Part shown: positions 461-13,117 of the stretch, one piece after another | Position numbering within the stretch: the first letter of the stretch is position 1 | Layout: each line of letters opens with the position of its first letter | Assembly: GCF_023897065.1 (NCBI RefSeq) | Contig: NZ_JAMHIV010000006.1 | Coordinates: 124,001 to 188,000 of the forward strand | Origin: Crossiella sp. SN42 | Lineage (GTDB): Bacteria; Actinomycetota; Actinomycetes; Mycobacteriales; Pseudonocardiaceae | Reading direction: 5' to 3' | Length of the DNA: 64,000 bases | Program-made: the position numbers and the translations under genes | Notes under the pieces: model-generated | The model's input: only the letters and a program-made list of their open reading frames with translations | Database searches by the model: none | Told to the model about the DNA's origin: nothing

Positions 461-796
461 ATGCTGGAGAACTACCGCTGGGCGGAGTCGCTGCTGGCCC
501 AGGGCGACCCGCTGGGCGCGCTGCAGGTGCTGGCGCCGATGCTGGGCGAGGACGCGGAGTTCTCGGTGCGGCTGCTGGCCGCCCGCGCCTACTACCACTC
601 CGCGCAGCTGGGCCGGGCCGAGCGGCTGCTCACCGAGCTGACCGAGGCCGACCCGACCGACCACTACGTCCGGTTTCTGCTCGGCCGCACCTTGGAGCGC
701 GCGGGCAGGCGGCCGGAGTCGGTGCCGCACTTCCGGCTGGCCGCGGCGCTCTCGCCGAGCCAGGACTACGCGGAGGCGCTGGCCAGGGTGGCCTGA
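461..796 (+). CDS. Small TPR-repeat protein
   Basis: Encodes 111 residues forming about three TPR-like helical hairpins (AESLLAQGDPLGALQVLAPM, AYYHSAQLGRAERLLTELTE, GRTLERAGRRPESVPHFRLA). Such proteins are cytoplasmic protein-protein adaptors; no partner is evident here. The ATG at 461 is chosen because GGAGGG lies 7-12 nt upstream; an in-frame TTG at 437 has no good ribosome site. The palindrome TCCACTGTGGA overlaps the region just upstream of the ribosome site. A hairpin follows the stop. Confidence 0.75.
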   Translation: MLENYRWAESLLAQGDPLGALQVLAPMLGEDAEFSVRLLAARAYYHSAQLGRAERLLTELTEADPTDHYVRFLLGRTLERAGRRPESVPHFRLAAALSPSQDYAEALARVA

Positions 797-811
797 GCAG
801 GAACAGACGAA

Positions 812-844
812 CGGCCCGGTCGCGGCAGGAACGCGGCCGGGCCG
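812..844. terminator. Bidirectional terminator hairpin
   Basis: CGGCCCGG (812-819) pairs with CCGGGCCG (837-844), with CGCG/CGCG inside. It lies between the converging stops of the TPR gene (796) and the metalloprotease gene (861), so it can serve both strands. Confidence 0.65.
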
Positions 845-860
845 CTTCGCTTGTTCGAGA

Positions 861-1409
861 TCAGCCCGCGAGGGCCCACTCCCTGCCGTCGGTGCTGAAC
901 GGCTCCACGCTGCCGAAGCCGTTGGCGAAGTTGCGCTCCACCTGGGCCTTCTCCGCGGCGTTCGGGTTGACGTTCTTGCAGCTGGTGCCCGCGCTGGCGC
1001 CGGACATCAGGTCGACGCACAGGCCGGTGCGCCGGTCCGGCAGGCCGAGGATGTGCCCCAGCTCGTGCGAGGTGATCCGCGGGATGTGGTGCCCGTCGTT
1101 GACCGCGGTGCGGCCCATCCACACGGTGCCGCGGCCGAGGCCGGTCACCTGGGCGCGCGGCCAGCCGTTGTCGGCCAGGATCCGGACCTGGGCCGGCGTG
1201 CCCGGCTCGAACCGGACGTTCTTGACCGAGGCGTTCCAGACCCTGGCGCCCTCGTCCCAGGCCGCCTTGAACTCCTGCGCCTGGCTGGTGTCGTACTTGA
1301 TCACTCGGACCGCGCTGGGCTCCGCGGCCGCGGGTGAGATGACCACGAGCAGCGAGGCCGCCGCGGTGACCACCCCGACCACCAGCTGCCTGATCTTGTT
1401 CTGGAGCAC
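861..1409 (-). CDS. Secreted snapalysin-like zinc metalloprotease (M7)
   Basis: 182 residues with a signal peptide (hydrophobic residues about 8-28, ending SPAAA). The mature part carries the zinc motif HELGHILGLPD followed by RRTGLCVDLMSG and a second Cys. That is the layout of snapalysin, the small neutral protease of Streptomyces, which uses HExxHxxGxxD with Asp as third zinc ligand. Length fits an M7 enzyme without a long propeptide. The start is GTG at 1409 with AGGAGA about 7 nt upstream; an ATG four bases earlier is in another frame. It probably degrades extracellular protein. Monocistronic. Confidence 0.88.
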   Translation of the reverse strand: MLQNKIRQLVVGVVTAAASLLVVISPAAAEPSAVRVIKYDTSQAQEFKAAWDEGARVWNASVKNVRFEPGTPAQVRILADNGWPRAQVTGLGRGTVWMGRTAVNDGHHIPRITSHELGHILGLPDRRTGLCVDLMSGASAGTSCKNVNPNAAEKAQVERNFANGFGSVEPFSTDGREWALAG

Positions 1410-1602: not shown

Positions 1603-2403
1603 TTAGGCGAGCACGCGGTAGTGGGTTTGGTAGACGGTCCGGAATCCGGCCTTGTCGTAGAGAACCAGTGCGGCCGGGTTGTCGTCCATCACCTGGAGGT
1701 AGAGCTTTCTCGCGCCGTCGGCCCGGCCCCAGTGGGCGAGCGCGTGCAGGATCGCGCGGGCCGCGCCCCTACGCTGCGCCGAGGGCAGGGTGGCCTGGCA
1801 GTAGATGCCCAGCCAGTCCTGCTCGCGCACGCCCAAGGCGATCGCGACCGGCTCGCCGTCCAGGCGAACCGAGGCGTAGGCGGTGGGCTGTGCGATGCGG
1901 CGCAGGATCCTGGCGCGAATGTCGGCGCTCTCCGGAGTGAGCCGGTCCTCGGACTCCTCGGCGTCCGCGCTTATTCGCGGCGACTCGGATCTGCAGTAGG
2001 TGCCGAACCATTCTTCGTCGATGACCGGGGTGATCCGCACTTCCGGCGCGCCGGGGGCGGCGGTGCGGTCGAGCACCTCGTCCGCCTCGGCGGCTTGGAC
2101 CGCGGTGGGCCACTTCCGCTGGTAGCCGCGCCGGGCCAACACCTCGTCGAGTTCTCCGGGCAAAGCGGCTGGGGACAGCTGAAACGACGGTGGCAGGCCG
2201 CGTTCGCCGTAGAACTTCTCGACCTGGGTGATCCGGGTGTCCAGGTCCGCCGCGCCGCTGAGCTCGTTCGGCCACACCGCGTTGGCCCGCCGGGTGACCC
2301 CGGCGCCGTACCGGAGCCGCCAGCCGCCGAGATCCTCGACACTCAGCGCCGGCCACGCGTGGATCGCCAGCTTTTCCAGCAATCGTGCCGTCTCCAGGCT
2401 CAT
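1603..2403 (-). CDS. GNAT-family N-acetyltransferase
   Basis: About 266 residues. The C-terminal half has the acetyl-CoA site (LPSAQRRGAARAILHALAHW, Q/R-x-x-G-x-G/A type) and the final LYDKAGFRTVYQTHYR strand-helix-strand of GNAT enzymes. The N-terminal half (WPALSVEDLGGWRLRYGAGVTRRANAVWP) is the less conserved lobe common in two-lobed actinobacterial GNATs. Substrate unknown. I place the start at ATG 2403 because a palindrome fits the promoter just upstream; a TTG at 2439 would add 12 residues. It is divergent from the GT20 gene, so acetylation of the neighbouring cluster product, as tailoring or self-protection, is possible but unproven. Confidence 0.8.
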   Translation of the reverse strand: MSLETARLLEKLAIHAWPALSVEDLGGWRLRYGAGVTRRANAVWPNELSGAADLDTRITQVEKFYGERGLPPSFQLSPAALPGELDEVLARRGYQRKWPTAVQAAEADEVLDRTAAPGAPEVRITPVIDEEWFGTYCRSESPRISADAEESEDRLTPESADIRARILRRIAQPTAYASVRLDGEPVAIALGVREQDWLGIYCQATLPSAQRRGAARAILHALAHWGRADGARKLYLQVMDDNPAALVLYDKAGFRTVYQTHYRVLA

Positions 2404-2428
2404 TCCCGGAGTGTGCGTGCGGCCCGTT

Positions 2429-2453
2429 GGAGTGGTCAAACATTTGCCACTCC
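2429..2453. promoter_or_regulatory. Palindrome in the GNAT/GT20 divergent promoter
   Basis: GGAGTGG (2429-2435) pairs with CCACTCC (2447-2453). Inside, CAAA and TTTG also pair, leaving one unpaired base in the left arm. It sits between two divergent starts about 80 nt apart, a usual place for an operator. The regulator is unknown; the StrR-like gene at 12143 is one candidate. Confidence 0.5.
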
Positions 2454-2482
2454 GGCCGGTGCGCTATTCACTGTGATCGGTG

Positions 2483-3844
2483 ATGACCAGCACTGTTCTC
2501 GTCAGCAAGCGAGGGCCTGCGGAGTTTCGGCTGAATGCGCGCACCGGCGCGGTCGAGCCGCGAAATCCGCATGGCGCGGCCACCGGTGTGGTCAGCGCGA
2601 TGGCGCGGCGGCTGGGCGCCGGCGTGCCCTGGATATCGAGCGCGACCAGTGACGGTGACCGCCAGTTGGCCCGCGCGCACCCGGACGGGTTCGAGCTGGC
2701 CATCGGTGAGGGCCACACCGCCCGGGTGCACCTGCTCGAGCACCGGGCCGAGGTGTTCGCCGCGGTGCAGGACCGGACGAGCAGCGGGCTGCTGTGGCAG
2801 GCGCTGCACGGGGTGTGGGACCGCTGGTCCGAACCCACCTTCGACGAGGGCACCCGTCGGGACTGGGCGGCCATGGGCGAGTTCTGCCAGGACTACGCGG
2901 ACCGGATCGCCAGGGTCATCGGCGGCGAGCCCGGGGCGCGGGTGGTGCTGCACGACTACCAGTTCACCGGGCTGCCCGCCCGGTTGCGCGCGGCGGTGCC
3001 GGACGTGTCGATCTGCACGGTCATCCACGTGGCCTGGCCTGATCCCGGGCAGCTGCGGGTACTGCCGCGGTACATGCGAGAAGAGATGATCCGCGGCCTG
3101 CTGAGCTCGGACCTGGTCGTGGTGCTGGCCGAGCGGTGGGCGCGCAACATCCTGGACTGCGCGCGGGAGTTCGGTGGCGCGGAGCTGGGTGGCCGGGTCG
3201 TGGTCCAGCCGCTGGGCTACAGCCCGGACCTGTTGCGGCAGGCGGAGTTCCCGCCGGAGGACGCGCAATGGGCGGCGGGGCGTCCGCTGGTCGTGCACTA
3301 CGGCCGGACCGACCCGATCAAGAACGCGCCCAGGGCGATCCAGGCCTTCCGGCTGGCCCTGGACGGGGAGCCGCGGCTGCGGGAGAGCCGGTTGCTGGTG
3401 CGCGCCGCGCCGCACCACCTCGGGCACACCGCGAACCTGCGCTACCTGGAGCAGCTCGAGGCCGAGGCGGCGCTGACGAACAAGGAGCTGGGCGCGGAAA
3501 CCGTGCGGGTGGTCCAGGTCAACGACGTGGCGGCCACCTTCGGCGCCTACGCGCACGCCGACGTGCTGGTGGCCAACTCGGTGGTCGACGGCCAGAACGT
3601 CGGGCCGTTCGAGGCGGCCATGCTCAACGACCGGCTGCGGATCGTGCTCTCGGAGAACGCGGGCGCGGCCGAGGTGCTGGGCGAGCACGTGCTGGTGGTC
3701 AACCCCTTCGACGTGGCCGAGCAGGCCGAGGCGCTCCGCCGGGCGCTGCTCACCAGCCCCTCGGCGGGGCTGCGCGCGGCCGTGGCGCCGCACACCTGGG
3801 AGTCCTGGGCCGACAGCGTGCTCGCGCTGCTCGCGGAAAGGTGA
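2483..3844 (+). CDS. VldE/ValL-like GT20 pseudo-glycosyltransferase
   Basis: 453-residue glycosyltransferase of the GT20 (trehalose-6-phosphate synthase) fold. From memory it matches VldE/ValL, the validamycin pseudo-glycosyltransferase that joins GDP-valienol to validamine-7-phosphate through a C-N bond, in several blocks: QPLGYSP, VVHYGRTDPIKNAPRAI (R275, K280, the phosphate-binding pair), VDGQNVGPFEA (D369, E377, nucleotide-ribose region) and NPFDVAEQAEAL. True OtsA proteins usually read DGMNLVAKE at the third block. The start may be GTG 2480 or ATG 2483. The stop is 5 nt before the MFS gene, so they form one operon. Predicted to build a non-reducing amino-disaccharide or pseudo-disaccharide; the actual donor and acceptor are not known. 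Confidence 0.8.
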   Translation: MTSTVLVSKRGPAEFRLNARTGAVEPRNPHGAATGVVSAMARRLGAGVPWISSATSDGDRQLARAHPDGFELAIGEGHTARVHLLEHRAEVFAAVQDRTSSGLLWQALHGVWDRWSEPTFDEGTRRDWAAMGEFCQDYADRIARVIGGEPGARVVLHDYQFTGLPARLRAAVPDVSICTVIHVAWPDPGQLRVLPRYMREEMIRGLLSSDLVVVLAERWARNILDCAREFGGAELGGRVVVQPLGYSPDLLRQAEFPPEDAQWAAGRPLVVHYGRTDPIKNAPRAIQAFRLALDGEPRLRESRLLVRAAPHHLGHTANLRYLEQLEAEAALTNKELGAETVRVVQVNDVAATFGAYAHADVLVANSVVDGQNVGPFEAAMLNDRLRIVLSENAGAAEVLGEHVLVVNPFDVAEQAEALRRALLTSPSAGLRAAVAPHTWESWADSVLALLAER

Positions 3845-3849
3845 GATCC

Positions 3850-5046
3850 ATGCGACAGGACATCCGCCGCCTGGCGCCGGTGTCGGCGTTCTTCGCGCTG
3901 AGCGGCTTCACCCACGGCAGCTGGACGCCGCGGCTGCCGGGCATCGTGGAGCAGATCGGGGCCGACGTCGGCATCCTCGGCATCACGCTGACCGGCTCCA
4001 GCATCGGCATGATCATCGCGGCCTCGCTGGCCGGCAGGCTGTGCATGGCCTTCGGCGCGCGCCGGATGCTGGCGGCCAGCACGCTGCTGGTCTGCCTGAT
4101 GCTGCCGCTGCTCGGCTCGGTCACCACGGTGGTTGCCTTCGGTATCGCGCTGGTCGTGCTCGGGCTGGGCATCGGCCTGCTCGACGTGGCGATGAACGTG
4201 GCCGCGGCCGCCATGGAACAGCGGCTCGACCGGCCGGTGATGTCGATCTTCCACGCGGCCCTGCCCATCGGCGGCGTGCTCGCCTCCCTGGCCGCCGCGC
4301 TGGCCGCCGGACTGAAGATCAGTCCGCAGGCGCACCTGCTGGTGGTGGGCGTGGTCGGCCTGGCCGTCACGCTGACCGCGTTGCGGGCCATTCCCAAGGA
4401 CCTCACCGGCCAGCCGAAGCAGGACGCGGCCGGGAGCGCGGGCCGGGCGCCGTTCCGCCTGCCCGCGCTGTGGCTGCTGGCCGGGGTCGCGCTGTGCTCG
4501 GTGATCGCCGAGGGCACCGCGGGCAAGTGGTCCGCGCTGTTCCTGGTCGGCGACCGGGGTGTGTCCGAGGGCGCGGCCGCGCTGGCCTACACCGTTTTCG
4601 CCGCCTCGATGATGGTGGCCAGGCTGTTCGGCGAGCAGGTGCGCAACCGGTGGAGCGCGGCCCGGATCCTGGTCTGCACCAGCGTGATCGCCGCCTTCGG
4701 CCTGCTGGGCGCGGTGCTGGTGCCCTCGGCCCTGGCCAGCTACCTGGGCTTCGCGCTGGCCGGGGTCGGCCTGGCCTACGCCTTCCCGGTGGCGCTGGCG
4801 ATGGCGGGCAAGGCGGGCCGGGACAACGGCGGCGACGGGGCGCGCGAGATCGGGTTCGTCACCACGGTGGCCTACTGCGGCTCCTTCGCCGGATCACCGC
4901 TGGTCGGCGGCATCGCCCAGGTCAGCAGCCTGGCGGTGGCGTTCGTGGTGGTGGGACTGCTGGCCGCGCTGATCGGCCCGCTCGGGGCGTCGGCCCAGGC
5001 CGTGCTCGGGAAGAAGAAGCAGCCTGAGCCGACCGCCCGGCAGTGA
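3850..5046 (+). CDS. MFS transporter, probable product exporter
   Basis: 398 residues with about 12 hydrophobic segments in two six-helix halves. The first is preceded by GFTHGSWTPRLPGI and resembles the YbjJ-like branch of the major facilitator superfamily. It starts 5 nt after the GT20 stop and is clearly co-transcribed. Its stop (TGA 5044-5046) is one base from the stop of the converging dehydrogenase gene, with no terminator between. Co-transcription with a glycosyltransferase suggests export of the cluster product; uptake of a sugar precursor is the alternative. Confidence 0.8.
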   Translation: MRQDIRRLAPVSAFFALSGFTHGSWTPRLPGIVEQIGADVGILGITLTGSSIGMIIAASLAGRLCMAFGARRMLAASTLLVCLMLPLLGSVTTVVAFGIALVVLGLGIGLLDVAMNVAAAAMEQRLDRPVMSIFHAALPIGGVLASLAAALAAGLKISPQAHLLVVGVVGLAVTLTALRAIPKDLTGQPKQDAAGSAGRAPFRLPALWLLAGVALCSVIAEGTAGKWSALFLVGDRGVSEGAAALAYTVFAASMMVARLFGEQVRNRWSAARILVCTSVIAAFGLLGAVLVPSALASYLGFALAGVGLAYAFPVALAMAGKAGRDNGGDGAREIGFVTTVAYCGSFAGSPLVGGIAQVSSLAVAFVVVGLLAALIGPLGASAQAVLGKKKQPEPTARQ

Positions 5047-5047
5047 G

Positions 5048-6043
5048 CTAGGGAGCGAAGGCGAGCTTGCCCGCGCCGTAACCGCTGCCGGGTCCGAGGG
5101 CGAGCAGTTCGAAGGCCGACTTGGACTCGGTGAGCGGGAAGACGTCGGTGACCAGCTCCTCGCAGGGCAGGCCGCGGATCAGCTCGATCGCCGCCGGGAA
5201 CACCTGCGCGTGGTAGTCGCAGCTGCCGATCAGGCTGACGCAGCGGCCGGTCAGGTCGAAGGGCCGGATCGTCGCGGTGGCCGCGGTGTCGCAGCCCAGC
5301 AACAGCACCCGGCCACCGTCCTGCACCGTGCGCAGACCCAGTTCCAGGAGCGAGCCGGTGGTGTCCACCACGACCGTCGGCGGCGGGGACGCCGACTCGT
5401 CGAGCCCGGCCAGCGGGGTCAGGCCGGTGACCGCCGCGGCCAGCTCGCGCCGGTACGGGTCGGGCTCGACCAGGCTGACCCGCGCCGCCCAGCGGGCCGC
5501 GAGCAGGGCGGAGAGCACGCCCATCGGGCCGCCGCCCAGCACGACCACCCGGTCCGCCGGGCCGACCGCGGCCGCGCGCAGCCCGGTCAGCACGCAGGCC
5601 AGCGGTTCGATCAGCACGCCGCGCCGGTCCGGCACGTCGGCAGGCAACGGGTAGAGCGCCTGCTCCTCGACGGTGAGCAGCTGGGCGAAGGCGCCGTCCC
5701 GGCCGACGCCGATCTCCAGCGCCGACTTGTTCGCGCAGTGGCTGCTCTCCGCGCGCAGGCACCGGTCGCAGCGGCCGCAGGACTGGGTCGGGTCCAGCAC
5801 CACCCGATCACCGGGCCGCAGTCTGTTCACCCCCTCGCCGACCTCGGTCACCACGCCGACCGCCTCGTGCCCGAGCACCCTGGGCGGCTCGCAGTGGTAG
5901 CGGCCGAGGTAGATCGCCCGGTCGGTGCCGCAGACCCCGGCCAGGGTGGGCCGGAAGGTCACCTGACCCGGTCCGGGCGCGGGCGGGGCGGCCCGCTGTT
6001 CCAGCGCCAGCTCACCGGGTCCGCGGAACTGAAGGACATGCAT
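5048..6043 (-). CDS. Zinc-dependent medium-chain alcohol/cyclitol dehydrogenase
   Basis: 331-residue MDR dehydrogenase. Catalytic zinc ligands are C38 (CGTD), H59 and E60 (GHE). The structural zinc lobe is complete with C89, C92, C95 and C103. The Rossmann motif is VVVLGGGPMG. The family oxidises secondary alcohols of sugars, polyols and cyclitols with NAD(P); examples are sorbitol, threonine and 2-deoxy-scyllo-inosamine dehydrogenases. It follows the aminotransferase by 14 nt, so a natural reading is oxidation of a sugar or cyclitol hydroxyl to the ketone that the aminotransferase then aminates. Last gene of the minus operon. Confidence 0.82.
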   Translation of the reverse strand: MHVLQFRGPGELALEQRAAPPAPGPGQVTFRPTLAGVCGTDRAIYLGRYHCEPPRVLGHEAVGVVTEVGEGVNRLRPGDRVVLDPTQSCGRCDRCLRAESSHCANKSALEIGVGRDGAFAQLLTVEEQALYPLPADVPDRRGVLIEPLACVLTGLRAAAVGPADRVVVLGGGPMGVLSALLAARWAARVSLVEPDPYRRELAAAVTGLTPLAGLDESASPPPTVVVDTTGSLLELGLRTVQDGGRVLLLGCDTAATATIRPFDLTGRCVSLIGSCDYHAQVFPAAIELIRGLPCEELVTDVFPLTESKSAFELLALGPGSGYGAGKLAFAP

Positions 6044-6057
6044 GTTGTCCGTGCCTT

Positions 6058-7323
6058 TCAGAGAGAGGTGAGGACGCGGTCCAGCCGGTCGCAGATGAGG
6101 TCCGCCTCCTCGTGGGTCAGGATCAGCGGCGGACGGATCTTCACCACGTTGCCGAGGCCGTACCGCGAGGAACGCAACAGCAGGCCGTGCTCCCGGCCTT
6201 TCCGGACGATCTCGTTGGTCAGCGCGGGCGAAGGCGTGCCGTCCTGGTCGACCACTTCAAAGCCGATCATCAGGCCGACGCCGCGAATGTCGTCGACGCA
6301 CCGGTGCCGTTTCCGGAGTTCGGTCAGCCTGCCCAAAATATGTGCGCCTACCTCGCGCACATTCGCCAGGAAAGCCTCGTCGTCCACCACGCTCAGCACG
6401 GCGTTGGCCGCCGCGGCGGCCAGCACGTTCGCGCCGGAGGTGAAGGAGAGGTATTCGGTCTCCAATGGCCCCAGTTTGGGATCGGAGAGCATCGCGGCCA
6501 CCTGCGCGCCGCCGCCGAGACCCTTGCCAATGGTGAGGACATCCGGTTGCACGCCGAAGTGCTCGGCGGCGAACATCCGGCCGGTCCGGCCGATTCCGGT
6601 TTGGATCTCGTCGAAGATGAGCACGATGCCGCGTTCGTCGCAGAACTCGCGCAGCCGGGCCAGATAACCCTCCGGCGCGACCACGTTGCCGCCGTTGCCG
6701 GTGATCGGTTCGACGATGACCGCGGCGACACTGCCGGAGCTGGCGAACTCGATGAAGTCGTCGATCCGGTTCACGCACATCAGGCCGCAGGTCTCCCGCC
6801 GCTGCCCATAGAAACAGCGGTGGCAGTACGGGTCCGGCACGATCAGCCTGCTGATCCCCACCTCCGGGAAGGGCGCGCGGCGGAAGGCGTTCCCGGAGAT
6901 CGCGGTGGTGGCCATGGTCTGGCCGTGGTGGCCGCGGAACAGGCTGATGACGTCCCGGCGGCCGGTGGCCCGCTGGGCGAGTTTGATCGCGCCCTCATTG
7001 GCATCCGATCCGCTGGCCACTTTCAGGTGCACGCGCTGGATGTTCTCCGGGGACACCGCGACGAGTTTGCGCACCAGCTCGTTCACCGGGTGGTTCTGGA
7101 ACGACGAGGACGCGTGCACCAGCAGCTCGGCCTGTTGCTGAATCGCCTTGACCAGTGCGGGATGGCGATAACCGATGCTCAGGTTGAAAGTGCCAGCGGC
7201 GCAGTCGAGATATTTGTTCCCCTCGGCGTCGCAGGCGTAAACACCCTCCCCGTCGACGATGGTGACCGTTCCGACGCTGTAGGAGTACAACTCCCTGACG
7301 TCGCCCACCAGATTGGTAGCCAT
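6058..7323 (-). CDS. Class III PLP aminotransferase with four-cysteine insert
   Basis: 421 residues, fold type I, class III (ornithine/GABA aminotransferase group). D238 (FDEIQTGIGRTG) holds the PLP pyridine nitrogen and K267 (TIGKGLGGG) forms the Schiff base. An insert carries C167, C170, C179 and C183 (C-x2-C-x8-C-x3-C), seen in some class III aminotransferases and possibly a small metal site. Strong AGGAGG ribosome site and ATG start. It lies between a HAD phosphatase and a sugar or alcohol dehydrogenase, which suggests amination of a keto-sugar or keto-cyclitol. The 66-nt gap upstream is the longest inside this operon. Confidence 0.85.
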   Translation of the reverse strand: MATNLVGDVRELYSYSVGTVTIVDGEGVYACDAEGNKYLDCAAGTFNLSIGYRHPALVKAIQQQAELLVHASSSFQNHPVNELVRKLVAVSPENIQRVHLKVASGSDANEGAIKLAQRATGRRDVISLFRGHHGQTMATTAISGNAFRRAPFPEVGISRLIVPDPYCHRCFYGQRRETCGLMCVNRIDDFIEFASSGSVAAVIVEPITGNGGNVVAPEGYLARLREFCDERGIVLIFDEIQTGIGRTGRMFAAEHFGVQPDVLTIGKGLGGGAQVAAMLSDPKLGPLETEYLSFTSGANVLAAAAANAVLSVVDDEAFLANVREVGAHILGRLTELRKRHRCVDDIRGVGLMIGFEVVDQDGTPSPALTNEIVRKGREHGLLLRSSRYGLGNVVKIRPPLILTHEEADLICDRLDRVLTSL

Positions 7324-7389
7324 CGAACCTCCTCTTGGCTGACAGAGGAAATTCTATGGACGGGTAAGAGTGGTTGCGAATAAAGGAAT

Positions 7390-8049
7390 TCAGCGCAAAC
7401 CGAGCAGTCGCGGCAGCTCGCGCATGTCCTCGAACTCAATGGTGCGCTCGCCGGTGAGCGCGCCCGGCGGCACCAGTTCGGTGCGGTAGCCGAGCACCGT
7501 CATGCCGGCCGCCCGCCCGGCGGCGACGCCTGCCGGGCTGTCCTCCACCACGGCGCAGCGGTCCGGCGGCACGCCCATCTTCCTGGCGGCGTGCAGGAAG
7601 AGGTCGGGCGCCGGTTTGCCGTGCTCGACCTCCACCGCGCTGAAGATCCGGCCGTCGAACCGGTCGGCCAGCCCGGTGATGCCCAGCGTGGTGGCCATCT
7701 TCTCCGGGGTGCCGCTGGAGGCCACGCAGGTCGGCACCCCCGCGGCGGCGATCGCGTCCAGCGCCGCCACCACGCCGGGCACCGCGGTGAGGTCGCGGCG
7801 GAACCGGTCCCGGTAGCGCTCGTGCAGCCCGGCCAGCCAGTCCGCGCCCAGCGCCCGGCCCACCTGGCGCTCGATCTCGGCCAGCATGTGCTCATCCGAC
7901 TTGCCGAGGAACCGGCCCGCCACCTCCGCCGGCGTCAGCGGCCACCCGGTCTGGGTGATCAGCTCCGCCTCGACCTGGACGCAGAGCCGCTCGCTGTCCA
8001 CCAGCACGCCGTCGCAGTCGAAGATCACCAGGTCGAAGTGGCCGTTCAC
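7390..8049 (-). CDS. HAD-superfamily phosphatase / beta-phosphoglucomutase-like
   Basis: 219 residues, HAD subfamily IA. Motif I is FDCDGVLVDSE (nucleophile D11, acid D13); motif II is in ASSGTPEKM; motif III is the K in EHGKPAPDLF; motif IV is VEDSPAGV. It has the alpha-helical cap of beta-phosphoglucomutases and small sugar phosphatases. The start is GTG at 8049, overlapping the transketolase stop as GTGA, so translation is coupled. In the neighbourhood it could remove phosphate from an amino-sugar phosphate, as NtdB does in kanosamine formation, or from the coupled product, as in validamycin assembly. Confidence 0.85.
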   Translation of the reverse strand: MNGHFDLVIFDCDGVLVDSERLCVQVEAELITQTGWPLTPAEVAGRFLGKSDEHMLAEIERQVGRALGADWLAGLHERYRDRFRRDLTAVPGVVAALDAIAAAGVPTCVASSGTPEKMATTLGITGLADRFDGRIFSAVEVEHGKPAPDLFLHAARKMGVPPDRCAVVEDSPAGVAAGRAAGMTVLGYRTELVPPGALTGERTIEFEDMRELPRLLGLR

Positions 8050-9917
8050 CGGTCCAGGTCACCGCCTCGAAGTAGGTCGCGGGCCGCGGCCGCGATGTGC
8101 CCGGCCGAGATCCCGGCCAGGTCGAGCTGTTCGGCGGGCGAGGCGGAACCGGGCATGGTCCGCACCGCCAGGTGCCGGGCACGATACGTGATCTCCTGCT
8201 CCGCCAGGCCCTCGAACACCGCCGCACCGAGACCGCCCTCGGGCCGGTGGTCCTCGGCGACCACCAGCCGTCCGCCGGTGGCGGCCAGCGCCCGCCGGAC
8301 CGCGGCCGTGTCACAGGGCTTCACCGAGTAGAGGTCCAGCACCCTGGCGTGGATCCCTTGTGCGGCAAGGGTATCCGCCGCGTCGAGCGCCTCGTGCACG
8401 GTCACCCCGGCGGCCGCGAGCACCACCGAGTCCCGCTCGTCCGAGCGCAGCGTCTTGGACCCGCCCACCGGGAACTGCTCGTCGCTGCCGTAGAGCACCA
8501 GCCGGGCGTTCCGGGTGATCCGCAGGTAGCAGATGCCCTCGGTGTCCAGCGCGGCCTTGGTCAGCGCCCCCGCGGAGACCGCCTCGCTGGGGTAGAGCAC
8601 CACCGAGCCGTGGATCGCGCGCAGCGCGGCCAGGTCCTCCAGCGCCATCTGGCTGGGGCCGTCCCGGCCGATCTCCACCCCGCCGTGCGAACCGGCCAGC
8701 ACCAGGTGCGACCGCGAGATCGCGGCCATCCGGACGAAGTCGTAGGCCCGGCTCAGGAACGCGCCGTAGGTGGAGACCACCGGGGTGAAACCGCGCGCGG
8801 ACAGGCCGACCGCGGTGCCCAGCATCTGCTGCTCGGCGATGTAGGTCTCGATGAACCGGCCGGGGTGCCGGGCGGCGAACCGGTCGGTGCGCATGGACAC
8901 CGTCACGTCGCCGTCGATCACCACCACCTCCGGGCGCTCGCCCAGCTCGGCCAGCGCGTCCCCGAAGGCGTCCCGGATGGCGACCAGGTCGCCGACGGCG
9001 TAGCGGGGGAGCCGGACCTCGGTCCGGGCGGGCGGCGGTGGGACCGGCCCGCGCGGCGGCGGCGGTCCGGTCAGCCGCACCCGCTCCGGCGGTTCGATCA
9101 GGGCCAGCGCGCGGCGGGCGGTGGCCTCGTCCAGGGCCGCGCCGTGCATCTCCGCGCGGTGGGTGATCTCCTCGAAGCCCTGGCCCTTCACCGTGCGCGC
9201 GACGATGGCCAGCGGCTCGGCGTTGGCGCCGGCCTGGGCGAGCGCGGCGTCCACCTGGTCGAGGTCGTGGCCGTCCACCTCGGCGACCTGCCAGCCGAAG
9301 GCGCGCAGCCGGGCCGCGTAGGTCTCGGCCGGACTCCGGTGCGGCACCGGCCCGGACTGGCCGTAGCCGTTCACGTCGATGATCGCGGTCAGGTTGGCCA
9401 GCCCGTGGATCGCGGCCTTGTCGAAGGCCTCCCACATCGAGCCCTCGGCCAGCTCGCCGTCCCCGCACAGCACCCACACCCGGTACGGGCGGCTGGCCAG
9501 CCGCGCGGCCAGCGCCATGCCGACCCCGATCGGCAGTCCCTGGCCGAGCGAGCCGGTGGCCACGTCCACCCAGGGCAGGTCGGGCGTCGGGTGGCCCTGC
9601 AACCGGGAACCGCGCTGGCGGTAGGTGGACAGCTCCTCGACCTCGATCGCGCCCGCCGCGGCCAGCACCGAGTACCAGAGCCCGGAGACGTGCCCCTTGG
9701 ACAGGACCAGCCGGTCGTTGTCCGGGTGCGCGGGATCGGCCCAGTCGTAGCGGAAGTGGCGGCTCATCAGCGTGGCGACCACATCGGCGCAGGACATCGC
9801 CGAGGTCGGATGCCCCGATCCGGCCGCGGTGCTGGTGCGGATGGCGTCCGCGCGGAGCTGGTCGGCGAGCCGGCGCAGCTGAGTCCTGGTCACTTCGCTA
9901 CCTGCGAGCTCGGTCAT
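8046..9917 (-). CDS. Transketolase, short (animal-type) form
   Basis: 623 residues with all three transketolase domains: ThDP-binding ([46 protein letters not shown]), pyrimidine-binding ([20 protein letters not shown]) and C-terminal ([17 protein letters not shown]). The length and motifs are closer to the roughly 620-residue animal enzyme than to the roughly 690-residue form typical of actinobacterial primary metabolism. It moves two-carbon ketol units between ketose and aldose phosphates. ATG at 9917 overlaps the kinase stop (ATGA); an upstream frame to 9959 is probably not translated. Its place in this operon suggests a dedicated C5/C7 or modified sugar-phosphate supply rather than housekeeping use. 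Confidence 0.87.
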
Positions 9918-10849
9918 CTCGGGTCTCCTCCCTCGGCCAGGCCGAGCAGCGGCCCGCACCGCCTCGCGATCTCCGGTCCCGGCGCGCGCGGGCCGACGTG
10001 CTCACAGGTGGCCGCGCCCGCGACCGCACCCACCACGGCGGCCTTCGCCGGGGCGAGTCCGGCGATCCGGGCGGCCACGTAGGCGCCGTGGAAGGCATCG
10101 CCCGCGCCGGTGGAGTCGACCACCGTGGCCGGGGCCGCAGGCACCTGCTCGACCCGGCCGTCCGCGTCGGCGACCACCGAGCCGCGCGCGCCGAGGGTCA
10201 CCACCACGACCTCGGGGCCGTCGGCCAGCAGCTTGCGCGCGGCGTCCTCGATCACCTCGGTGCCGGCGAACCGGACGGCCACGTGCTCGGGCACGATCAG
10301 CTCGTCGATGTCGGCCAGCGCGGCGCCGAGCCAGTCGGCGTCCTCGGCGTCGGCGAAGGTGCGCACCCCAAGTCCCTTGGCGGCCGCCAGCCCGTACCGG
10401 CTGAACTCGGCTTCCCTGCCGTCGGAGAAGAAGGCGTGGCAGCGGCGCAGCAGGCTTGGCGGCAGCTGGGTGTTGTCCGGGGTCAGCGCCGGGTTCTTCT
10501 GGGTCACGATGGTCCGTTCGCCATTTCCGTCCACCACCACCGCGGCGAAATGGTGGTCGGCGCCCGGCACCAGAATCGAGCCTTCGACCGCGCAGCCGTG
10601 GTCGAGCAGGAAACGGCGGTGCTGTTCGCCGTCGGGATCGGCGCCAAAACGGCCGACGAAGTTGGTGCGCAGGCCGAGTGCGCTCATCACCAGGCAGGCG
10701 TTGGTCGCCTCCCCGCCGACCGCCCTGGCCAGCTCGTGCGCCACCTGCTTGTGGCCGGGGTGGAGCGCCGCGCCGATGCGCAGGGTGTAGTCGATCGTGG
10801 CATTTCCGACGACCACCACGTCGTAGCGCGTTTCCGGTGGACTCGTCAT
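9914..10849 (-). CDS. PfkB-family (ribokinase-like) sugar or nucleoside kinase
   Basis: 311 residues. The N-terminal signature VGGEATNACLVMSALGLRTNFVGRFGADPDG is the PfkB motif 1, and DSTGAGDAFHGAY is motif 2 with the catalytic Asp and anion hole. The family phosphorylates ribose, fructose, adenosine, tagatose-6-phosphate and similar substrates; the substrate here is unknown. First gene of the minus-strand operon; coupled to transketolase by an ATGA overlap. A kinase feeding a phosphorylated sugar to a transketolase is a coherent step. The ATG at 10849 is preferred to a GTG at 10858. Confidence 0.83.
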   Translation of the reverse strand: MTSPPETRYDVVVVGNATIDYTLRIGAALHPGHKQVAHELARAVGGEATNACLVMSALGLRTNFVGRFGADPDGEQHRRFLLDHGCAVEGSILVPGADHHFAAVVVDGNGERTIVTQKNPALTPDNTQLPPSLLRRCHAFFSDGREAEFSRYGLAAAKGLGVRTFADAEDADWLGAALADIDELIVPEHVAVRFAGTEVIEDAARKLLADGPEVVVVTLGARGSVVADADGRVEQVPAAPATVVDSTGAGDAFHGAYVAARIAGLAPAKAAVVGAVAGAATCEHVGPRAPGPEIARRCGPLLGLAEGGDPR

Positions 10850-10914
10850 GGAAAGCACCCTGCCGGAGCGGGCGGAGAGCGCGCAAACACGTCGATTCGC
10901 CTTACGCTCGCCGG

Positions 10915-11373
10915 GTGCGCGTCCTCCATTGCCCTGATCCCGTCGAGTCGGTCACCAGCGGTCCGCGCCTATTCCTGGCCGGTCCTTCACCGCGGAACTC
11001 CACCGCGTCCTGGCGCGATGAGGCCTGCGCCCATCTGCGGAAGGTCCAGTTCGCCGGAGTGGTGCTGCACCCGCAGTCCCGGCCGGGCGAACCGGCCGTT
11101 CCGGTCGAGGTGCAGTTGCGCTGGGACTGGCAGGCCGGCGCGCACGCCGACGCGATCGTGTTCTGGATTCCCCGGGTTTTGCCGGAACTGCCCGGCCTGA
11201 CCTCCAATTTCGAGTTCGGCCTCTGGGCCCGTTCCGGCAAGGCCGTGCTGGGCGCGCCGCCGGAAGCCGCCGAGATGGCCTATCTCCGCGGCACCGCCGA
11301 GCTGTTCGGCGTGCCCCAGGCCGAGACCCTGCCGGACGCACTCGACCAGGCGCTCCTGGTGCTGGCCGCCTAA
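10915..11373 (+). CDS. Nucleoside 2-deoxyribosyltransferase-like protein
   Basis: 152 residues with the compact Rossmann-like fold of the Nuc_deoxyrib_tr2 family. PRLFLAGPSP is the first strand and loop, ADAIVFWIPR the second, and SNFEFGLWARSGKAVLGAP supplies the conserved glutamate region. GTG start at 10915, found by frame from the stop; no strong ribosome site. It is divergent from the kinase operon, and its stop overlaps the APH stop. These proteins cleave or exchange N-glycosidic bonds of nucleosides or related molecules; a role in the neighbouring pathway is speculation. Confidence 0.7.
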   Translation: MRVLHCPDPVESVTSGPRLFLAGPSPRNSTASWRDEACAHLRKVQFAGVVLHPQSRPGEPAVPVEVQLRWDWQAGAHADAIVFWIPRVLPELPGLTSNFEFGLWARSGKAVLGAPPEAAEMAYLRGTAELFGVPQAETLPDALDQALLVLAA

Positions 11374-12137
11374 TCCGCGAGCCGGTTCGCTTCCAGATAG
11401 GCGATATCCCGTTCGTAGAGCAGGTGGTGGCCGAGCTCGAGCACCCGCTGCTGCGCCGGATCGCCATTCCCGGCCCGGGTCACGATGAACTCGACCATTT
11501 CCCGAAGCCGCAGGACGGCCGTCGCGGCCACCTGGCCAGGGGTGATCTCGTCCATTCCGTAGGCCGCCACGAACAACGTCAGCCGCCTGCGCTGTTCGGC
11601 GAGACCCGGATAGGGCACATCGTGATTATCCGGGTCGGTCAGCGGCACGAACCGGTAGGCCGTGTACGCCAGATCCCACACCCTAGGACCGGGGGAGACC
11701 GTGTCGAAGTCGATGACCCCGGAAAGCCGATCTCCCTCGAACATCAGGTTGTACGGGGCGAAATCGTTGTGGCACAGCACTTCCACCGGTTCGTGCGCGG
11801 GCAGCTGCCAGACCGCGTCGTCCGGTGGCCGGAAGTCGGCGGTGGCCTCGTGGTAGTCGCGCAGCAGCTCCGCGACCGCGATGAGGGTGCGGTCGCTGAG
11901 CACGTGCGCGGGCAGCGGGTAGTGCGCCGCCGCGCCCGGCAGCAGGCTGATCACCTCCCGGCCCTGCTCATCCAGGCCCAGCGCTTCCGGTGCGCGGTCG
12001 AACCCGCGCCGCCGCAGGTGGTCGAGCAGCGCGTGCACCGAGGGGGTCCACGGCCCGGCGGCCCGCCGGACCGTGTCACCCACTTTCACCACGCTGGTCA
12101 TGTTGCCGCCGGTGAGGATTTCTTCCACGAGCGCCAC
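11370..12137 (-). CDS. Aminoglycoside phosphotransferase (APH)-family kinase
   Basis: 255 residues. The kinase loop HNDFAPYNL (catalytic Asp, Mg-binding Asn) and IDFDTVSPG (DFG equivalent) are intact. The N-terminal part, EEILTGGN then VVKVGDTVRRAAGPWTPSVHALL, is conserved in a large actinobacterial APH subfamily, which favours the GTG start at 12137 over ATG 12101. It starts 6 nt past the StrR-like regulator stop, so they are probably co-transcribed. Members act on aminoglycosides, homoserine, choline or unknown small molecules. Next to an amino-sugar type cluster it is a good self-resistance candidate, but many genomes carry such kinases in ordinary places. Confidence 0.8.
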   Translation of the reverse strand: MALVEEILTGGNMTSVVKVGDTVRRAAGPWTPSVHALLDHLRRRGFDRAPEALGLDEQGREVISLLPGAAAHYPLPAHVLSDRTLIAVAELLRDYHEATADFRPPDDAVWQLPAHEPVEVLCHNDFAPYNLMFEGDRLSGVIDFDTVSPGPRVWDLAYTAYRFVPLTDPDNHDVPYPGLAEQRRRLTLFVAAYGMDEITPGQVAATAVLRLREMVEFIVTRAGNGDPAQQRVLELGHHLLYERDIAYLEANRLAD

Positions 12138-12142
12138 CCTAA

Positions 12143-13117
12143 CTATTCTTCCGGCGGGGTCTCCAGCCGACGGTTGATCTCCTTCCACGCTTCCGCGTAG
12201 TACTGGGCGAGTTTGGCCACCGGATCGGAACAATGCGCGGGCAGGCCGTCGATCGCGCTGTACAGGCTGTGCAGCGCACCGGCTTGCAGGTGAATCCAGC
12301 GCAGCAGCGTCCGGCCCGAACTGGTCAGCCGCAAACTCGGATCGCTGTTCATGCTCTGCACGATCGCGCCGATCCGCGCCAGCCGCGAAGAATCCTCCTC
12401 CGCCGCCGCGACCGCCGGTCCGGCGGGCTTGCGCCGGGCGACCGGATCCTCACCCCGGTTCAGCCGCATCCGCACATCGCGCGCGGTGGACAGCGAAATC
12501 CCGGCCTCCTTGGCGATCTGCCGCAACGAGGCGTCCGGGTTGTCCCGGACAAACCGGGAGGCGCGAATCCGGCCAGCCGCCGGACTGATCGGCCGGACCC
12601 GGCCGTCCGCGCCGATCCGGGTGTTCGACTGCGCAATTCCGGGATTCGAACGGGCCCGGATCGTGGCCACCGTGCGCGGCGACAGTCCGGTGGTGCCGCC
12701 GACCACCCGATCCGACCATTCCGGGGTGGCCGCGATGATCCGCTCCGCCGCGGCCCGCCGATCCGCCAGGGTCAGCGGCAGGCCGTGCATGGTGTTGAGC
12801 CGCACGGCCAGCACAAATGCTTCGGCTTCACTGCCTTCGAAGAATTCCGCCTCGATCTCGGTCCGCCGCAGCAGGATCGCGGCCCGCACCCGGTGCACGC
12901 CGTCGATCACCCGCAGGGACGGCCAGTGCACCAGAATCGGCGGCAGCGCACCCGCCGAACCGGCCAGTTTCGCCACGTGCTCGGCATCGGCCCCGGCCGA
13001 CCGCGGCGAATCCCGCAAGCTCAGACTGCTGATCGGCACGATCCGAGTGCGGCCGCCAGCCCGGACCGGACTCGTCAAATGTTCCGCTCGCTCCAGTTGC
13101 CCGACGTCGTCCTGCAC
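12143..13117 (-). CDS. StrR-family ParB-like cluster regulator
   Basis: 324 residues. The N-terminal ParB/Srx-like domain reads VPISSLSLRDSPRSAGAD, LPPILVHWPSLRVIDGVHRVRAA, AEAFVLAVRLNTMHGLPLTLADRRAAAERII, the pattern of pathway activators StrR (streptomycin), Bbr/Tei15* (glycopeptides) and NovG. Two helix-turn-helix stretches follow (GLSPRTVATIRARS; ASLRQIAKEAGISLSTARDV). These proteins almost always sit in antibiotic clusters and bind inverted repeats near target operons. GTG start with a good GGGGAGG site. It strongly supports reading the block to its left as a secondary-metabolite locus. No classical StrR box was seen by eye. Confidence 0.85.
   Translation of the reverse strand: MQDDVGQLERAEHLTSPVRAGGRTRIVPISSLSLRDSPRSAGADAEHVAKLAGSAGALPPILVHWPSLRVIDGVHRVRAAILLRRTEIEAEFFEGSEAEAFVLAVRLNTMHGLPLTLADRRAAAERIIAATPEWSDRVVGGTTGLSPRTVATIRARSNPGIAQSNTRIGADGRVRPISPAAGRIRASRFVRDNPDASLRQIAKEAGISLSTARDVRMRLNRGEDPVARRKPAGPAVAAAEEDSSRLARIGAIVQSMNSDPSLRLTSSGRTLLRWIHLQAGALHSLYSAIDGLPAHCSDPVAKLAQYYAEAWKEINRRLETPPEE

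What the first reader, a model, noticed from the sequence alone, without database searches (positions are those of the whole stretch)
2404..13117. Candidate biosynthetic cluster for an amino-sugar or aminocyclitol pseudo-disaccharide
Seen: a VldE-like GT20 enzyme with an exporter on one strand; kinase, transketolase, HAD phosphatase, aminotransferase and zinc dehydrogenase, almost all coupled, on the other; then an APH kinase and a StrR-type regulator. Known: dehydrogenase + aminotransferase + HAD make kanosamine from glucose-6-phosphate (NtdC, NtdA, NtdB), GT20-like pseudo-glycosyltransferases make validamycin-type C-N pseudo-disaccharides, and StrR-family regulators mark such clusters. Inferred: this set makes an aminated sugar phosphate or cyclitol and couples it to a second unit, giving a trehalosamine-like or validoxylamine-like product. 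The combination with kinase plus transketolase is not one I recognise.
Basis: partly seen in the sequence, partly recalled or inferred. Interest (0 to 1): 0.85.

Follow-up and report, generated by a model that had tools for sequence, protein, structure and literature searches.

The report
Azasugar cluster with sugar-coupling enzyme
A soil-type actinomycete carries a 12-kb gene island that probably makes a nitrogen-ring sugar mimic and joins it to a second sugar, combining two inhibitor-making pathways that the related genomes examined keep apart.

Summary
The genes are there as described. The GT20 protein belongs to the VldE pseudo-glycosyltransferase clade, not OtsA. The genome's only DHQ-synthase-family gene is aroB, whereas 37 of 38 named GT20 loci have a cyclase candidate nearby or a second such gene in the genome. 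Aminotransferase, zinc dehydrogenase and HAD phosphatase instead resemble the azasugar set GabT1/GutB1/phosphatase: motif SGxx[FW]R in 2/2 window-type and 11/11 azasugar-type rows, 0/42 ValM-type rows; trees. An AU test does not reject a ValM-side placement (p 0.12). Kinase and transketolase probably supply the ketose phosphate. Alone among the rows examined, this GT20 has lost the acceptor-phosphate arginine (R326 to His) that 56 of 57 others keep, so it probably takes a non-phosphorylated acceptor, as an azasugar route would give. The set is one island, absent from the same site in two genus-mates. Best reading: a cluster for a glycosylated azasugar (pseudo-disaccharide) under a StrR-type activator, a hybrid of two known kinds seen in one species. 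The product is inferred.

The parts
1603..2439 (-). GNAT acetyltransferase (ATG start 2403 or TTG 2439), inside the island; role unknown (self-protection or tailoring)
   Evidence: PF00583 52 bits, PF24553 84 bits; absent with the rest of the island in G108 and G086
2483..3844 (+). VldE-clade GT20 coupling enzyme with altered acceptor site (N325H, R326H, N323A in VldE numbering)
   Evidence: phmmer VldE 5.9e-89, E. coli OtsA 2.3e-8; tree 100/100 with VldE clade; residues; AF2 pLDDT 89.5; Foldseek top 18 all VldE/ValL
3850..5046 (+). MFS transporter, probable exporter (direction not shown)
   Evidence: PF07690, 103 bits
5048..6043 (-). zinc-dependent MDR dehydrogenase, GutB1-like (aminopolyol dehydrogenase)
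   Evidence: PF08240; tree with azasugar MDRs 94/91, with GutB1 of P. polymyxa 93/85; 33% to that GutB1
6058..7323 (-). class III aminotransferase, GabT1-like, motif SGNAFR...VPDPYCHRC
   Evidence: PF00202 320 bits; 58-63% to the nearest azasugar-type ATs, 46-55% to intact ValM-type; motif and trees
7390..8049 (-). HAD phosphatase
   Evidence: PF00702/PF13419; 37% over 209 aa to the HAD of the P. polymyxa azasugar locus
8046..9917 (-). transketolase of the 620-640 aa (human-like) type
   Evidence: NF004559 835 bits, cut-off 488; human TK 3.4e-150; other family genomes 50-57% apart from G055
9914..10849 (-). PfkB/ribokinase-family sugar kinase
   Evidence: PF00294 124 bits; ribokinase TIGR02152 99 bits, below its cut-off of 300
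10915..11373 (+). nucleoside 2-deoxyribosyltransferase-like small protein, role unknown
   Evidence: PF15891 46 bits; 97% in G055
11370..12101 (-). APH-family kinase, possible self-protection
   Evidence: PF01636 66 bits
12143..13117 (-). StrR-type regulator (putative)
   Evidence: no family over cut-off, weak HTH; 45% to a homologue in L038
12623..12651 (+). StrR-box-like palindrome inside the regulator gene
   Evidence: 2 mismatches to GTTCGACTG-N11-CAGTCGAAC; 0 matches in 100 shuffles at up to 3 mismatches; present in G055

Best explanation
A biosynthetic island for a glycosylated azasugar (pseudo-disaccharide). The PfkB kinase and transketolase make a ketose phosphate (C5 to C7, size open). 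The GabT1-like aminotransferase aminates its C2 ketone; the HAD enzyme removes the phosphate; the GutB1-like zinc dehydrogenase oxidises the freed hydroxyl, and the amine closes the ring to an azasugar. The VldE-like GT20 then joins a hexosyl unit from a (probably GDP-) sugar nucleotide, with retention, to this non-phosphorylated acceptor through its nitrogen or a hydroxyl, giving a trehalose- or validoxylamine-like inhibitor. MFS exports it, APH and/or GNAT may protect the producer, and the StrR-type protein activates the genes. Shown here: gene content, family placement, residue changes, island structure, absence of a cyclase gene. Inferred: every substrate, the order of steps, the bond formed, the direction of transport and the target.
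For: AT + phosphatase + MDR is the published azasugar signature, HAD being one of its two phosphatase types, and an MFS gene is commonly associated (PMC8382821). A named example, P. polymyxa plasmid CP097774, has MFS-AT-GutB1-HAD; window AT 50%, MDR 33%, HAD 37% identical. AT motif SGxx[FW]R: window 2/2, azasugar-type 11/11, ValM-type 0/25 tree rows and 0/42 of all rows with a readable motif. AT trees: with azasugar rows 97/93 or 95/88; MDR tree 94/91. GT20: VldE clade 100/100; D158, Y159, H182, R290, K295, D383, E391 and guanine-side R321, N361, T366 kept, but N323, N325 and R326 changed. In VldE, Arg326 contacts the acceptor phosphate and Asn325 the phosphorylated cyclitol (PMC3441724). No EEVS-type gene found in the genome. 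Island present or absent as one block. In 31 of 38 named GT20 loci a paralogous AT lies near, in 22 an MFS gene, so GT20, AT and MFS belong together elsewhere too. Same-genus genomes without GT20 or AT (3 of 3) have no transketolase match at 1e-100, so this TK looks like an extra one.
Against: AU test does not reject window AT + ValM as one side (p 0.122); the AT is on a long branch of its own. MDR support is moderate, under the 95 mark. The GT20-MFS pair is convergent to the other operon, so joint function rests on the island and on the association seen in VldE-type loci. S388, a donor-phosphate contact of VldE, is Gly here. No nucleotidyltransferase gene in the island. Weak PfkB homologues (27-34%) also lie in 5 of 38 named VldE-type loci, so the kinase might act on the acceptor rather than feed the transketolase. 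No gene for C1 reduction or epimerisation, although these are unclustered in DNJ producers too (PMC8382821). Histidines could still bind a phosphate. The block was found in one species only (2 of 249 family genomes).
Confidence: 0.6

Rival explanations
1. Two neighbouring functions: the five-gene operon makes a simple azasugar, while GT20-MFS makes or moves something else (for example a trehalose analogue).
For: The two operons are convergent with 1 base between stops. The two azasugar-type loci read in the same family show no GT20 hit (L129, L130). No independent recombination of the block is known to link them.
Against: Both are present or absent with the same ~12-kb island. In 31 of 38 named GT20 loci a paralogous AT lies near, in 22 an MFS gene. 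The loss of the phosphate arginine fits a non-phosphorylated acceptor.
Confidence: 0.2
2. A validamycin-like aminocyclitol or trehazolin-like aminocyclopentitol pseudo-disaccharide, with ring formation by a non-EEVS route.
For: GT20 is of the VldE clade. ValM is a relative of the azasugar ATs (PMC8382821), and the AU test leaves that side open. Weak PfkB homologues occur in 5 of 38 VldE-type loci. Trehazolin comes from related actinomycetes (recalled).
Against: No DHQ-synthase paralogue in the genome; no radical SAM or other known ring-forming family among the eleven island genes; MDR tree and AT motif are of azasugar type.
Confidence: 0.13
3. A sugar or amino-sugar catabolic operon (kinase, transketolase, phosphatase, aminotransferase, polyol dehydrogenase), with the MFS protein as importer.
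For: Each enzyme family also occurs in catabolism; the MDR resembles sorbitol- and threonine-type dehydrogenases; MFS proteins can import.
Against: No ABC or PTS uptake genes and no glycosidase family among the island genes; a VldE-clade GT20, an APH and a StrR-type regulator are in the same island; nearest AT and MDR kin lie in azasugar-type loci.
Confidence: 0.05

Closest known systems
Azasugar three-gene cluster (GabT1 - phosphatase - GutB1; DNJ of Bacillus, DAB-1 of Chitinophaga, P. polymyxa type)
   Same: Class III AT with SGNxFR...VPxPYCxRC, HAD phosphatase, GutB1-like MDR, MFS
   Different: Adds PfkB kinase, transketolase, VldE-clade GT20, APH, GNAT, StrR-type regulator; gene order kinase-TK-HAD-AT-MDR
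Validamycin-type C7N aminocyclitol clusters (VldE/ValL, ValM, EEVS)
   Same: VldE-clade GT20 near a class III AT and an MFS gene; catalytic and most donor residues kept
   Different: No EEVS-type gene found in the genome; AT motif and MDR not of ValM/ValN type; acceptor residues Arg326 and Asn325 replaced by His
GDP-glucose-dependent OtsA (S. venezuelae, 5LQD)
   Same: GT20 fold, query TM-score 0.84-0.86; purine donor
   Different: 29-30% identity, below VldE (37-38%); forms trehalose 6-phosphate (PMC5247666, passages); 5LQD itself was not in my tree
Streptomyces VldE-clade loci L092, L094, L096
   Same: GT20 followed directly by MFS; His at the N325 position
   Different: Keep R326; OtsB-like HAD, nucleotidyltransferase and NagA-like genes nearby (my reading); a second DHQ-synthase-family gene in the genome; no AT hit in the loci

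Membership tests
Azasugar three-gene cluster | Class III aminotransferase with the published consensus SGNXFRXXXFPN...LXVPXPYCXRC | tested here: met
   SGNAFRRAPFPEVGISRLIVPDPYCHRC: fixed letters met except E for N; spacer two shorter than printed, as in the Streptomyces-type rows such as L053
Azasugar three-gene cluster | GutB1-like zinc dehydrogenase adjacent | tested here: met
   adjacent gene; tree 94/91 and 93/85 with azasugar MDRs, moderate support
Azasugar three-gene cluster | Adjacent phosphatase, IMPase or HAD | tested here: met
   HAD 7390-8049, PF13419; 37% to the P. polymyxa HAD
Azasugar three-gene cluster | Aminotransferase groups with azasugar ATs rather than ValM | tested here: inconclusive
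   trees 97/93 and 95/88 for it; AU test of the ValM side p 0.122
Azasugar three-gene cluster | Makes an azasugar | not testable with these tools
   needs chemistry
Validamycin-type aminocyclitol cluster | 2-epi-5-epi-valiolone synthase | tested here: not met
   one DHQ-synthase-family match in the genome, between shikimate kinase and dehydroquinase genes; the same-species G055 also has one
Validamycin-type aminocyclitol cluster | VldE/ValL-clade GT20 | tested here: met
Validamycin-type aminocyclitol cluster | Acceptor residues Arg326/Asn325 in the GT20 | tested here: not met
   His-His in both strains; R326 in 56 of 57 other rows, the exception being a truncated ORF, L095
Kanosamine NtdABC pathway | DegT-type aminotransferase and Gfo/Idh-type dehydrogenase (recalled) | tested here: not met
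   PF00202 and PF08240 instead
OtsA trehalose-6-phosphate synthase | Groups with OtsA | tested here: not met
   107 bits or less against OtsA-type models with cut-offs of 564 to 759; tree
StrR-type regulators | Sequence family and StrR DNA site | tested here: inconclusive
   no family model over cut-off; one near-consensus site

The most novel reading that the evidence does not exclude
The GT20 is a pseudo-glycosyltransferase recruited from the aminocyclitol pathway to form a C-N bond between a GDP-activated hexose and the nitrogen of a free, non-phosphorylated azasugar or aminopolyol, giving a new scaffold: an aza-analogue of validoxylamine or trehalose made without any sugar-phosphate cyclase.
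Probability: 0.3. Interest if true: 0.85.

Novelty: new variant of a known kind. Interest (0 to 1): 0.62.

Why it matters
Azasugars and validamycin-type pseudo-sugars are two well-known natural sources of glycosidase and trehalase inhibitors. A cluster that joins the azasugar module to a VldE-type coupling enzyme predicts an unexplored inhibitor scaffold. It would also give a natural test of what decides acceptor choice in GT20 enzymes: the phosphate arginine kept by 56 of the 57 other rows examined, OtsA-type rows included, is changed here. It further suggests how phospho-ketose supply (kinase + transketolase) can be built into an azasugar pathway, which would make azasugar size predictable.

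Tried and rejected
Rejected: EEVS elsewhere in the genome (only aroB). Rejected: OtsA assignment. Rejected: kanosamine route. Rejected: my own note that L092, L094 and L096 lack a cyclase; one search showed a second DHQ-synthase-family gene in each genome, and for L094 I read it about 1.3-1.5 kb past the locus end, so I corrected it in the notebook. Searched without finding the same block elsewhere: GT20 in 249 family genomes (19 matches, only G000 and G055 with this block); GT20 in genome contigs by two peptide patterns (38 loci, best segment at most 49% identical, which may leave out the window's own or very near genomes); AT in 394 class genomes (8 matches at 1e-90) and 249 family genomes (17 matches at 1e-100). 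No transketolase hit appeared in the 38 named loci, in L024-L040, L052-L060 or L129-L130; those stretches were at most about 21 kb and some contigs much shorter. PDB kin of PfkB and MDR were too generic to give a substrate. Plasmid collection: one distant GT20 (31%) and two P. polymyxa ATs. Repeat scan of intergenic stretches gave nothing clear. Paper searches (listings only) showed no title or abstract start on a VldE-type enzyme with an azasugar set or on a trehazolin gene cluster; the library holds open papers only.

Rows chosen: the AT trees used 25 ValM-type rows picked by me out of 43 with an AT hit; one search then read the motif in all 43 (42 readable, L097 broken; some genomes occur twice, as G-handle and named loci). 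The GT20 tree used 33 of 59 rows. L059, an AT on a 3.2-kb contig (57%), was left out and has no readable motif. Weak points: L055 was labelled azasugar although no MDR hit lies near it. L053 and L057 also carry a glycosidase-like gene (my reading).
Full report
What is there. The window is part of a 9.72-Mb actinomycete genome (G000). One small gene (10915-11373, PF15891) was missed, and a GNAT gene (1603-2439) belongs to the same unit.

One island. In two of three same-genus genomes the flanking genes are conserved (window 461-1409 on the left, 13396 onward on the right), while everything between them, about 12 kb, is missing. A gene I read as a PLP-fold enzyme (G108), or that gene plus an Lrp-like regulator (G086), stands there instead. 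The third genome (G016) has no close copy of the flanking gene tested (best 37%). The same-species genome G055 has the whole block at 92-100% protein identity. So GNAT, GT20, MFS, MDR, AT, HAD, TK, PfkB, the PF15891 gene, APH and the regulator came or went together. The data do not say whether this was a gain or a loss.

GT20. Against the PDB the protein matches VldE at 5.9e-89, GDP-glucose OtsA (5LQD) at 5.6e-42 and E. coli OtsA at 2.3e-8. An AlphaFold2 model (mean pLDDT 89.5) has its 18 best Foldseek matches all in VldE/ValL entries (query TM-score 0.88-0.91, 37-38% identity); the first OtsA is rank 19. In a 33-row tree (of 59 rows at hand) it joins the VldE clade against OtsA-type rows with 100/100. 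Inside the clade it is a long branch of its own, whose relation to the validamycin-type group and to L092/L094/L096 is not resolved. In 59 aligned rows the window keeps R12, D158, Y159, H182, R290, K295, D383 and E391. Of the guanine contacts R321, N361 and T366 are kept and N323 is Ala; S388, a phosphate contact, is Gly. The two acceptor residues N325 and R326 are both His. In VldE, Arg326 contacts the acceptor phosphate and Asn325 the phosphorylated cyclitol (PMC3441724; parts 1-2 of 6 and passages read). R326 is Arg in 56 of the 57 rows other than the window and G055; the exception, L095, is a truncated ORF. N325 is less strict: L092, L094 and L096 also have His, and OtsA-type rows have Ser or Pro. 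The enzyme therefore looks like a VldE-type transferase with a largely GDP-type donor site and a rebuilt acceptor site. ValL has been reported to form C-O as well as C-N bonds (PMC12041759; listing and passages), so the bond here is open.

No cyclase. G000 has one DHQ-synthase-family match, lying between shikimate kinase and dehydroquinase genes by my reading, so it is aroB. G055 also has one. The other 17 GT20-positive family genomes all have two or more matches; in two of them (G039, G073) the second is weak and below the cut-off, and those two, with G100 and G230, carry only OtsA-like GT20s of 29-34% identity. Of 38 named GT20 loci, 29 show a cyclase-like gene within the locus. L070, a 2.4-Mb draft, has one and stays undecided.

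The other half is azasugar-like. PMC8382821 (parts 1-3 of 5 of the full text read) defines the azasugar three-gene cluster: a class III aminotransferase with consensus SGNXFRXXXFPNXXXXXXXLXVPXPYCXRC, a phosphatase (IMPase or HAD) and a GutB1-like dehydrogenase, with an MFS gene commonly associated. It notes that ValM is a relative whose neighbourhood lacks the phosphatase. The window AT reads SGNAFRRAPFPEVGISRLIVPDPYCHRC. SGxx[FW]R is found in 2 of 2 window-type and 11 of 11 azasugar-type rows, in 0 of 25 ValM-type tree rows, and in 0 of 42 readable ValM-type rows out of 43. Identity is 58-63% to azasugar-type rows L052-L058, L129 and L130 and 46-55% to intact ValM-type rows (the broken L097 is 34%). 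Two azasugar-labelled rows, L060 (47%) and P. polymyxa (50%), fall in the ValM range. Trees put the window AT with azasugar ATs (97/93; 95/88). Against this, an AU test does not reject window + ValM as one side (p 0.122). The MDR groups with azasugar MDRs (94/91) and with GutB1 of P. polymyxa (93/85), away from ValN-type rows; this support is moderate. An annotated P. polymyxa plasmid carries MFS, AT, gutB1 and HAD in a row; window AT, MDR and HAD are 50, 33 and 37% identical to its proteins. PMC8466323 (passages) reports 114 gabT1-yktC1-gutB1 clusters in 110 of 2062 Streptomyces genomes, some interleaved with APH-domain and other genes; those passages mention no GT20 or transketolase.

Kinase and transketolase. 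The TK is of the human-like length class. The four phosphate-contacting residues of human TK (R318, S345, H416, R474; numbering recalled) align with identical residues (read by eye). 83 of 249 family genomes have a TK at 1e-100 or better, 50-57% identical apart from G055; three of three same-genus genomes without GT20 and AT have none at that level. So the TK is probably dedicated to this pathway. The gene order kinase-TK-HAD-AT-MDR fits supply of a ketose phosphate followed by amination, dephosphorylation and oxidation; this is inference. Weak PfkB homologues (27-34%) also occur in 5 of 38 named GT20 loci, so the kinase may have another role.

Mechanism proposed. Sugar, then sugar phosphate (PfkB), ketose phosphate (TK), 2-amino-alditol phosphate (AT), free aminoalditol (HAD), amino-aldehyde and ring closure (MDR), then hexosyl transfer from a GDP-sugar (GT20) and export (MFS). 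An azasugar oxidised at the former phosphate-bearing carbon cannot carry that phosphate, which agrees with the lost phosphate arginine. Two independent lines, pathway logic and residue change, thus point the same way; neither is proof.

Regulation. A 29-bp palindrome at 12623-12651, inside the regulator gene, differs at two positions from GTTCGACTG-N11-CAGTCGAAC; 100 shuffles gave none at up to three mismatches, and no other site in the window has fewer than four (spacers 10-12). The consensus is quoted in PMC8306873 (passages). G055 shares the site, but that copy is too close to count as independent.

Verdict. A real, compact hybrid of two known inhibitor pathways, seen in one species. Family placement is solid for GT20, moderate for MDR, and fair to good for AT. 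The product is a prediction.

Noticed in passing
L092, L094, L096, L131: Streptomyces zingiberis, cyaneochromogenes and physcomitrii carry a VldE-clade GT20 with MFS, OtsB-like HAD, nucleotidyltransferase and NagA-like genes (my reading) and a second DHQ-synthase-family gene in the genome; reminiscent of salbostatin-type trehalase inhibitors (recalled)
   Followed up: partly
L038 (G100:C4:9500-29400): A Pseudonocardiaceae locus with an OtsA-like GT20, an MDR, an APH homologue, a 45% homologue of the window's regulator and a DHQ-synthase-family gene nearby; its MDR and HAD resemble those of L131 by eye
   Followed up: partly
L053, L057: Streptomyces azasugar-type loci with a nearby 618-622 aa glycosidase-like gene, perhaps a target or a resistance copy
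   Followed up: no
L062, L065, L069, L071: Noviherbaspirillum and Burkholderiaceae symbiont genomes carry VldE-type loci with a cyclase-like gene and a ValM-type AT
   Followed up: no
window 10915-11373: A nucleoside 2-deoxyribosyltransferase-like gene on the opposite strand inside the island, with no obvious role
   Followed up: no
L137 10512-12963, L138 9819-12672: The island's site in two genus-mates holds a PLP-fold enzyme gene, plus an Lrp-like gene in one, suggesting an exchange site
   Followed up: partly
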